Source: an uncultured bacterium
Lineage (GTDB): Bacteria; Patescibacteriota; Minisyncoccia; Moranbacterales; GWC2-37-73
Direction: 5' to 3'
Length of the DNA stretch: 41,630 nt
Assembly: GCA_903861715.1 (NCBI GenBank)
Contig: CAIOVI010000040.1
Location: 1-41,630 of the forward strand
Below are positions 26,591 to 28,599 of the stretch, one piece after another. Below the pieces are notes generated by a model. It worked only from the letters and a program-made list of their open reading frames with translations. It made no database searches and was not told the DNA's origin. The stretch's first letter is position 1, and each line of letters opens with the position of its first letter. Position numbers and translations under genes: made by a program.

Positions 26591-27976
26591 CAAATCAAAA
26601 CTTTGGCCCAATTTGAAGCCTTTTTGAAGACCCGCATTCCGACCCGGGAGGCTTTGTTTGTGGGCGAAATTGGCCTCAAGAGAGCCAAACATTTCATGAA
26701 GCTCTTGGGAAATCCCCAAAACCAAATCAAAGTCATTCACGTGGCTGGCACTTCCGGCAAAGGCTCGACTGCTCATTTGACCAGTCGCCTTTTGCAAAGC
26801 CAAGGTTTTCGCGTTGGCCTTTCAATTTCCCCTCACATTTTTGACATCCGCGAGCGCATTCAAATTGACAATCAACTGCCCAGCGAAAAATTGCTTTTGA
26901 AATATTTCAATCAAATTTTGCCCGTCATCCAAAAAATGGAAACTTGTCGCTATGGCGGACCAACTTATTTTGAAATTCTGGTGGGCTTGGCCTATCACAT
27001 TTTCGCTCAAGAAAAAATGGACTACGCCGTCATTGAAACTGGTCTTGGAGGTAGACTCGATGGCACCAACACAGTTTCCAGCAAAAACAAAATTTGCTTG
27101 CTCACCAAAATCGGTCTTGATCACACGGAGATTTTGGGAAACACAATTCCTGAAATTACTAAGGAAAAAGTTGGGATCATTCAGAGTCAGAATACAGTAA
27201 TCAGCAACGGGCAATCAGTAACCAGTAATCAAATAATTATTGAAAGATGCAAAGAAAAAAATGCTTTGTTATATTTTATTAAGCCTGAAAAAAATTACAA
27301 ACTAAGTTCATCCACCAAAACAACAACGGTTTTTGATTTCAAATTCAATTTCAATCAAAATAAAAAAGGTGCTTGGCACCAACTTCCGACGACCGCATTT
27401 TTTTGGTGCCACTTTGAAAAAATAAAGCTAGGACTAATCGGCGCACATCAAATTGAAAACTGCTGCCTGGCGCTGGCCTGCCTTTCGATTTTGGCTGATC
27501 GTGATAAATTCAAAATTGACGAATCAAAAATGCGCAGCGCTTTGCAAAAAATTTCCATTCCGGGCCGCCTCGAAATTCGCAAAGTTGGCAACAAATTTCT
27601 CATCATCGACGGTGCCCACAATTTGCAAAAAATGACCGCTTTTGTGACTAGCTTGAAAATAATCTTTCCTCAACAAAAGTTTGATTTTATTCTCGCTTTC
27701 AAAAAAGGCAAAGATTTCCAAAAAATGTCCAGACTGATTTTGCCAATTGCCAACCACGTCTTTTTGACTGGCTTTTCAACTTCCAACCAGGATGGGCCTT
27801 GGAATTCAATTGCTAGCGCTGAAATTGCAAAACATTTCAAAAAAGAAAAATTTGCAAATTTTTCTATCGTCAAAAATAACCAAAAGGAAATTCACTCCAT
27901 AATCAAACAATCCAAAAAGTCCGTCGTTCTGACTGGCTCACTCTATCTAATTGGTTCGGTTTACAAATACTTGTAA
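26588..27976 (+). CDS. folC: Folylpolyglutamate synthase / dihydrofolate synthase
   Basis: A Mur-ligase-family enzyme that adds glutamate to folates using ATP. Seen: [20 protein letters not shown] (P-loop), [60 protein letters not shown]. It is the only plus-strand protein gene here. The track ORF starts ten codons early; I use the ATG at 26588 because the -10 box lies inside the earlier segment and family homology begins at [10 protein letters not shown]. Two inserts break the central region: [16 protein letters not shown] (from 'cagtaatca' repeats) and [16 protein letters not shown] (from a palindrome). CPR often lack folate genes, so a related substrate such as a murein-like ligase cannot be wholly excluded. 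Confidence 0.9.
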
Positions 27977-27980
27977 GTAT

Positions 27981-28011
27981 AAAAAGACATTTCGCATGGA
28001 AATGTCTTTTT
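27981..28011. terminator. Bidirectional terminator between folC and tRNA-like gene
   Basis: AAAAAGACATTT/AAATGTCTTTTT, 12-bp stem with loop CGCATGG. It ends folC on the plus strand and, 4 nt after the 3' end of the tRNA-like RNA, that transcript on the minus strand. Confidence 0.9.
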
Positions 28012-28015
28012 ATTG

Positions 28016-28155
28016 CAGGCCCGATTGGATTCGAACCAACTTTCGGAATTCTCAAACTAAGAAAACGTTGACTGACCAAAATCTTTCAATGATAACAAAT
28101 CAATGTTTTCCAGCGTCACCCGTGAGAATTGCTTTTGCCCTTAAGCTACGGACCT
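28016..28155 (-). tRNA. tRNA-like RNA with about 66-nt insertion in the anticodon arm
   Basis: Read on the minus strand: acceptor arms AGGTCCG and CGGGCCT pair over 7 bp (one G-U), then TA, a D-arm GCTT-AAGGGCAA-AAGC, and a perfect T-arm GTTGG-TTCGAAT-CCAAT, with discriminator G. A1-U72 with G73 is typical of tRNA-Trp. The anticodon arm is replaced by AATTCTCA/TGAGAATT holding about 66 extra nucleotides, which fold further (GAAAACATTGA with TCAACGTTTTC). I find no 5-bp/7-nt anticodon loop with U33, so the amino acid is not assigned. It could be a tRNA with an unusually small intron, or a tRNA-like regulatory RNA. CCA is not encoded. A terminator follows at once. Confidence 0.6.
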
Positions 28156-28182
28156 ACTTAGTAATACATGTTTAGAGAAGAA

Positions 28183-28599
28183 TTATTTCAGCTTCTCTTT
28201 TGCCAAAAGTGATGATTTAAAGATGTCACGCTTGTATGATTTCAATCTGATTATTTTGGTTTTTTCCAAACCAAATTCCTGCAATTTTTTCTCCAAATTT
28301 TCAATGAAAAATTCTTGGTCATAGCCCAAGCAGATTATTTCAGGCGCAATTTTCTTCACCACGGCATATTTGTCTTTCAAATTTCCCAAAATAACTTCAT
28401 CGGACAATCCACTTTTTTCCACCTGCACTAATCGCTGCTTTTCATTGTGCAAAGGTTTTTTGCGTTTGACTTTGAAAACTGTTTCATCTCTGGCCACCAC
28501 CACCCGCAAAAAATCCCCCTGCTTTTTGGCTTGCCTTAAAAAATAGCGATGACCCTCATGAAAAATATCAAAGGTCCCAAAAACCAAAACTTTTTTCAT
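28183..28599 (-). CDS. Cytidylyltransferase-like nucleotidyltransferase
   Basis: A 138-residue HIGH-superfamily nucleotidyltransferase: KVLVFGTFDIFHEGHRYFLR at the N-terminus holds the HxGH site (here HEGH), and IKRLK... is replaced by IIRLKSYKRDIFKSS at the end (a SSS/KRS-type loop), with CLGYDQEFF in the middle. Such short forms are glycerol-3-phosphate cytidylyltransferases, HldE C-terminal-type enzymes or archaeal-type FAD synthases; GYDQ is like FAD synthase RibL. The substrate is not certain. Gene is followed within 30 bp by the tRNA-like RNA. Confidence 0.85.
   Translation of the reverse strand: MKKVLVFGTFDIFHEGHRYFLRQAKKQGDFLRVVVARDETVFKVKRKKPLHNEKQRLVQVEKSGLSDEVILGNLKDKYAVVKKIAPEIICLGYDQEFFIENLEKKLQEFGLEKTKIIRLKSYKRDIFKSSLLAKEKLK

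What the first reader, a model, noticed from the sequence alone, without database searches (positions are those of the whole stretch)
28016..28155. tRNA-like gene with about 66 extra nucleotides in place of a normal anticodon arm
Acceptor, D-arm and T-arm are perfect, and a terminator follows directly, so the gene looks alive. Yet no anticodon loop with U33 is present; an 8-bp helix opens into a further 11-bp hairpin. This is too short for a group I intron. Either a very small intron of unknown type, or a tRNA-like RNA with another role. End identity (A1-U72, G73) is tRNA-Trp-like.
Basis: partly seen in the sequence, partly recalled or inferred. Interest (0 to 1): 0.65.

Follow-up and report, generated by a model that had tools for sequence, protein, structure and literature searches.

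The report
tRNA-shaped noncoding RNA without anticodon
In one family of ultra-small bacteria (Moraniibacteriota) a conserved gene makes a tRNA-shaped RNA whose anticodon arm has been replaced by a long, conserved stem with a bulge, so it cannot read codons and very probably has another job, which is still unknown.

Summary
On the minus strand, 28155-28016, lies a 140-nt RNA with intact acceptor, D and T arms, an insert of about 66 nt where the anticodon loop should be, and a strong hairpin terminator directly behind it. Twelve more full-length copies exist, all in the same family (four genera). Their insert folds the same way with compensatory changes, has an invariant bulge GGGU, and sits behind a matching promoter-like region (TGAAA ... 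TGTAnTA, 13 of 13) that would start transcription at or next to the acceptor stem. No single excision gives a shared anticodon loop with U33 and a purine at 37. The 1:72 pair and base 73 vary between copies, and one genome has lost the normal D loop. No tRNA-splicing endonuclease was found in 18 genomes. Every amino acid has its own tRNA in this genome; tRNA-Asn is on another contig, interrupted by a genuine group I intron. tmRNA is separate. Best reading: a tRNA-derived regulatory or scaffold RNA, conserved in one family, that uses a tRNA-like body and a long arm with a conserved bulge. Partner and function are not shown.

The parts
28016..28155 (-). tRNA-like noncoding RNA, 140 nt; acceptor nt 1 at 28155, position 73 at 28016
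   Evidence: Rfam tRNA 34.5 bits; 12 further full-length homologues
28149..28155 (-). acceptor stem 5' strand AGGUCCG
   Evidence: fold; 7 pairs in 11 of 13 homologues
28131..28146 (-). D arm GCUU-AAGGGCAA-AAGC
   Evidence: degenerate only in G005
28123..28130 (-). helix P2 5' strand AAUUCUCA, in place of the anticodon stem
   Evidence: compensatory changes
28115..28121 (-). conserved asymmetric bulge region GGGUGAC (GGGU in all 13)
   Evidence: alignments
28105..28111 (-). helix P3 5' strand GGAAAAC
28098..28103 (-). helix P4 5' strand UUGAUU
   Evidence: 97% of cells paired, both-side changes
28092..28096 (-). conserved apical segment GUUAU
   Evidence: alignment
28068..28073 (-). helix P4 3' strand AGUCAA
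28060..28066 (-). helix P3 3' strand GUUUUCU
28047..28054 (-). helix P2 3' strand UGAGAAUU
28024..28040 (-). T arm GUUGG-UUCGAAU-CCAAU
28017..28023 (-). acceptor stem 3' strand CGGGCCU; position 73 (G) at 28016
27979..28013 (-). intrinsic-terminator-like hairpin with T run (symmetrical, could also serve the convergent folC-like gene)
   Evidence: fold z -8.4; a hairpin with T run also follows the RNA in relatives
28162..28168 (-). -10-like element TGTATTA, about 6 nt before the acceptor stem
   Evidence: TGTAnTA at the same place in 13 of 13; not reported by the generic scan
28185..28190 (-). -35-like element TGAAAT
   Evidence: TGAAA in 13 of 13
28183..28599 (-). neighbour upstream: cytidylyltransferase-like protein
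   Evidence: Pfam PF01467
26558..27976 (+). neighbour downstream, convergent: Mur-ligase family protein (folC-like)
   Evidence: Pfam PF08245, PF02875

Best explanation
It is a tRNA-derived noncoding RNA of one Moraniibacteriota family, made from its own promoter and terminator, that has left decoding. The tRNA-like body (acceptor, D and T arms) probably gives processing, stability and docking to proteins that bind the tRNA elbow. The former anticodon arm has become a long stem whose conserved asymmetric bulge (A)GGGUGAY and apical RUUAU segment are the likely contact sites for a partner protein or RNA. Shown: the architecture, its conservation, the absence of an anticodon, tRNAs for all 20 amino acids elsewhere, the separate tmRNA. 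Inferred: transcription start at the acceptor stem, stable accumulation, and any partner or regulatory act.
For: Thirteen full-length copies in four genera of one family. Insert pairing 90.4% of cells against 82.8% in shuffles, 27 both-side changes against 10.8, covariation score above all 500 shuffles and above every slid register. GGGU present in all 13. Promoter-like blocks TGAAA and TGTAnTA in 13 of 13, with terminator-like hairpins following. Within the genus, body and insert are about 80% identical against 50-61% for flanks. No shared anticodon loop possible. tRNAs for all 20 amino acids elsewhere: ARAGORN list plus tRNA-Asn with a group I intron on contig C12. tmRNA separate. lysS lies upstream on the same strand in both G000 and G008, which suggests vertical descent at one locus.
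Against: No expression data. One same-genus genome, G002, has the locus without the RNA, so it is dispensable at least there. G005 has lost the normal D arm and G012 the 5' half, so constraint on the tRNA body is not absolute. The shuffle control overstates significance for related sequences. Helix P3 is only 75% paired. Nothing identifies a partner.
Confidence: 0.76

Rival explanations
1. A translating tRNA with a very small intron of unknown type, removed by an unknown nuclease and a ligase.
For: The insert lies in the anticodon loop, the 5-bp anticodon stem is kept, a GUU or GUC sits near the 3' end of the insert in 12 of 13, and ARAGORN calls Asn(GUU) with intron in three relatives.
Against: No single excision yields U33 with a purine at 37 in 10 of 13, and the other three would give different anticodons. 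Five genomes with the RNA have an ordinary tRNA-Asn, and G000, G001 and G003 have tRNA-Asn with a real group I intron. PF01974 absent in 18 genomes. Pair 1:72 and base 73 vary. In the fold the GUU pairs with the conserved GAY.
Confidence: 0.05
2. A decaying tRNA pseudogene.
For: It lacks an anticodon; the G005 D arm and the G012 5' half are degraded; it is absent in G002.
Against: Compensatory changes in the insert helices, an invariant bulge, conserved promoter-like and terminator-like sites over four genera.
Confidence: 0.09
3. A ribosome-linked tRNA mimic: the bulge GGGUGAY pairs with the 16S rRNA 3' end (AUCACC) as a Shine-Dalgarno-like element. (A specific form of the best explanation.)
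For: GGUGA(U) is complementary to the usual bacterial 16S tail AUCACC (general knowledge, not read here); GGGUGAY is present in 11 of 13.
Against: G008 has GGGUAUA and G017 GGGUGGU. The 16S end of this genome was not read. No reading frame is kept. A seven-base complement is weak evidence.
Confidence: 0.1

Closest known systems
YrlA (bacterial Y RNA)
   Same: tRNA-like domain with D, T and acceptor-like arms joined to a long stem that binds a protein; 90-150 nt (PMC8394870)
   Different: In YrlA the 5' and 3' ends form the protein-binding stem; here they form the acceptor stem. No YrlA or Y RNA Rfam match up to E 10. A Ro/Rsr protein was not searched for.
tmRNA (ssrA)
   Same: acceptor and T arms of a tRNA; anticodon arm replaced by a longer helix
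   Different: 140 nt against about 400 nt; no conserved tag frame; a separate tmRNA gene exists in this genome
Pseudo-tRNAs such as Bacillus cereus tRNA-Other (PMC3399842)
   Same: tRNA-like element with a role outside translation
   Different: tRNA-Other keeps a Trp anticodon and lies in a much longer transcript; here the anticodon is gone, and promoter-like and terminator-like sites hug the RNA
Group I intron-bearing tRNA genes
   Same: insert in the anticodon loop; the real tRNA-Asn of this genome is one
   Different: insert of about 66 nt without any group I match; no shared spliced anticodon

Membership tests
translating tRNA | anticodon loop of 7 nt with U33 and purine 37 | tested here: not met
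   none in the precursor; no single excision gives it in 10 of 13, inconsistent anticodons in 3
translating tRNA | acceptor, D and T arms | tested here: met
   (D arm degenerate in G005)
translating tRNA | constant base 73 and 1:72 pair for one amino acid | tested here: not met
   A-U with G or A; A.C with G; U.G with U; C-G with U
protein-spliced (BHB) tRNA intron | tRNA-splicing endonuclease in the genome | tested here: not met
   PF01974 in 0 of 18 genomes, 4 of 4 archaeal controls positive
group I intron | match to the group I model | tested here: not met
   no RF00028 match at E up to 10 in 27900-28250, while the tRNA-Asn locus of the same genome scores 57 bits
tmRNA | match to the tmRNA model | tested here: not met
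   the tmRNA of this genome is at C37 with 124 bits; no tmRNA match here
YrlA / Y RNA | 5' and 3' ends paired in a protein-binding stem | tested here: not met
   ends pair in the acceptor stem; no Rfam Y RNA match
YrlA / Y RNA | Ro/Rsr partner protein in the genome | not tested
pseudo-tRNA with a role outside translation | tRNA fold kept, decoding lost, RNA expressed | tested here: inconclusive
   fold kept and decoding lost; expression not testable here

The most novel reading that the evidence does not exclude
A new class of tRNA mimic, specific to one lineage of ultra-small bacteria, in which the anticodon arm has become a binding platform and the tRNA body docks on the ribosome or on a tRNA-binding protein.
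Probability: 0.35. Interest if true: 0.72.

Novelty: new variant of a known kind. Interest (0 to 1): 0.55.

Why it matters
RNAs that reuse the tRNA fold outside decoding are few (tmRNA, YrlA, some pseudo-tRNAs), and noncoding RNAs of this group seem hardly described: a search of the open library for Moranbacteria together with noncoding RNA found nothing. This one has an alignment, a covariance model and natural absence in a sister genome, so genomes with and without it can be compared.

Tried and rejected
Missing tRNA-Asn: at first it looked as if this were the genome's only Asn tRNA, but the real one is split by a group I intron. BHB-type intron: the bulges come before, not after, the central helix on both strands, opposite to the archaeal arrangement (own reading of the fold). 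tmRNA substitute: tmRNA present. Cis-acting leader of serS: serS lies downstream in six of 13 genomes, but a terminator-like hairpin lies between and in genus g1 the neighbour is a convergent folC-like gene. Small open frame in the insert: by eye, not kept in length or frame. Parent tRNA: best matches differ between copies (Arg, Gln, Ala), no clear donor. Phage or plasmid origin: no match. Homologues elsewhere: none convincing in 131 genomes of the order or 380 sampled from the phylum; the weak hits in G047, G037 and G434 show no tRNA body.

Full report
Observation. The stretch 28155-28016 (minus strand) is matched by the Rfam tRNA model over its whole length with 34.5 bits, with about 66 extra nucleotides at the anticodon loop. 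The predicted fold has a 7-bp acceptor stem, a 4-bp D stem, a 5-bp T stem with UUCGAAU loop, and in place of the anticodon arm an 8-bp helix P2, a 5' bulge CGGGU, three pairs GAC/GUU, then helices P3 (7 bp) and P4 (6 bp). A 15-bp hairpin with a T run follows at 28013-27979. The fold energy by itself is unremarkable (z -1.1); the case rests on the match and the relatives.

Where it occurs. The genome is a Moraniibacteriota member: the same RNA pattern is found in named records of that group. BLAST and a covariance model find 12 more full-length copies, in genera g1, g4, g5 and g7 of the same family, plus a truncated one in G012. A model of the insert alone finds nothing convincing in the rest of the order (131 genomes) or in 380 genomes drawn from the phylum; these large searches used stricter filters, so weak relatives may be missed. 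No phage, plasmid or viral match. G002, of the same genus, has the folC-like locus without the RNA.

Conservation. On 13 inserts the structure pairs 90.4% of cells (shuffled mean 82.8), with 27 both-side changes (10.8) and a covariation score above all 500 shuffles and above all slid versions. The shuffles ignore relatedness, so this is support, not a probability. An alternative to the GAY/GUU pairs, extending P3 by two pairs, fits equally well. GGGU in the bulge is present in all 13. TGAAA and TGTAnTA stand at about the same distance upstream in all 13; the generic promoter scan does not report them, so the promoter is an inference from conservation. The generic scan also does not report the terminator, because its stem is rich in A-T pairs and the T run is inside the stem (own reading); the fold is given.

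Why it is not a working tRNA. (1) No anticodon loop exists and no single excision produces one with U33 and purine 37 in 10 of 13; three others give inconsistent anticodons. (2) The first pair and base 73 change between groups. (3) All 20 amino acids have their own tRNAs. ARAGORN lists every one but Asn, including Trp(CCA). tRNA-Asn was traced to contig C12, where a group I intron (57 bits, with a 108-aa reading frame that looks like an HNH nuclease by eye) splits it; G001 and G003 also have a split tRNA-Asn. G004, G005, G009, G015 and G018 have both the RNA and an ordinary tRNA-Asn. (4) No tRNA-splicing endonuclease family member in 18 genomes, while archaeal controls ring. (5) tmRNA is separate.

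Why it is probably not a pseudogene. A pseudogene would not be expected to keep compensatory pairs, an invariant bulge, and promoter-like and terminator-like sites over four genera. Within the genus, body and insert are about 80% identical and flanks 50-61%. Single losses (G002, the G005 D arm, G012) show it is not essential everywhere.

Mechanism. Committed reading: a noncoding RNA that uses the tRNA body for stability and protein docking and the long arm, with its bulge, for specific contact. The tRNA-body half is inferred from the tRNA-type D loop and T loop kept in 12 of 13; the contact is inferred from conservation of unpaired bases. No partner is known. A pairing of GGGUGAY with the 16S 3' end is possible but breaks in G008.

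Comparison. It works most like YrlA, whose tRNA-like domain and long stem bind two proteins (PMC8394870), but the ends are placed differently and no Rfam Y RNA match exists, so it is not filed there. It fails the tests for translating tRNA, group I intron, BHB intron and tmRNA. It is a new variant of the tRNA-mimic kind.

Noticed in passing
L146:531-798 (-), G000 contig C12; also L147:426-722 (-) and L148:845-1111 (+): tRNA-Asn(GUU) of this genome and of two congeners is split by a group I intron (57-67 bits); in L146 and L147 it carries a short HNH-like reading frame (by eye).
   Followed up: yes
L148 (G001:C27:15276-15731): Repeated 5' pieces of tRNA-Asn stand upstream of the intron-bearing copy, with a reading frame between them that looks like a GIY-YIG nuclease by eye; G003 has one such piece.
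   Followed up: no
L057, L060, L062, L061, just after the terminator: An inverted copy of the T-arm and acceptor 3' strand (16, 14, 11 and about 9 bases) lies beyond the terminator in four relatives; origin unknown.
   Followed up: no
L012:99-174 (-), G000:C16:7300-7372: A weak tRNA-like gene (27 bits) with an 8-nt anticodon loop GUUCAUUU; ARAGORN cannot name it.
   Followed up: no
L123:1057-1132 (-), G012: Truncated homologue: core and T arm kept, 5' half of the tRNA body missing, promoter-like TGAAAT still in front.
   Followed up: partly
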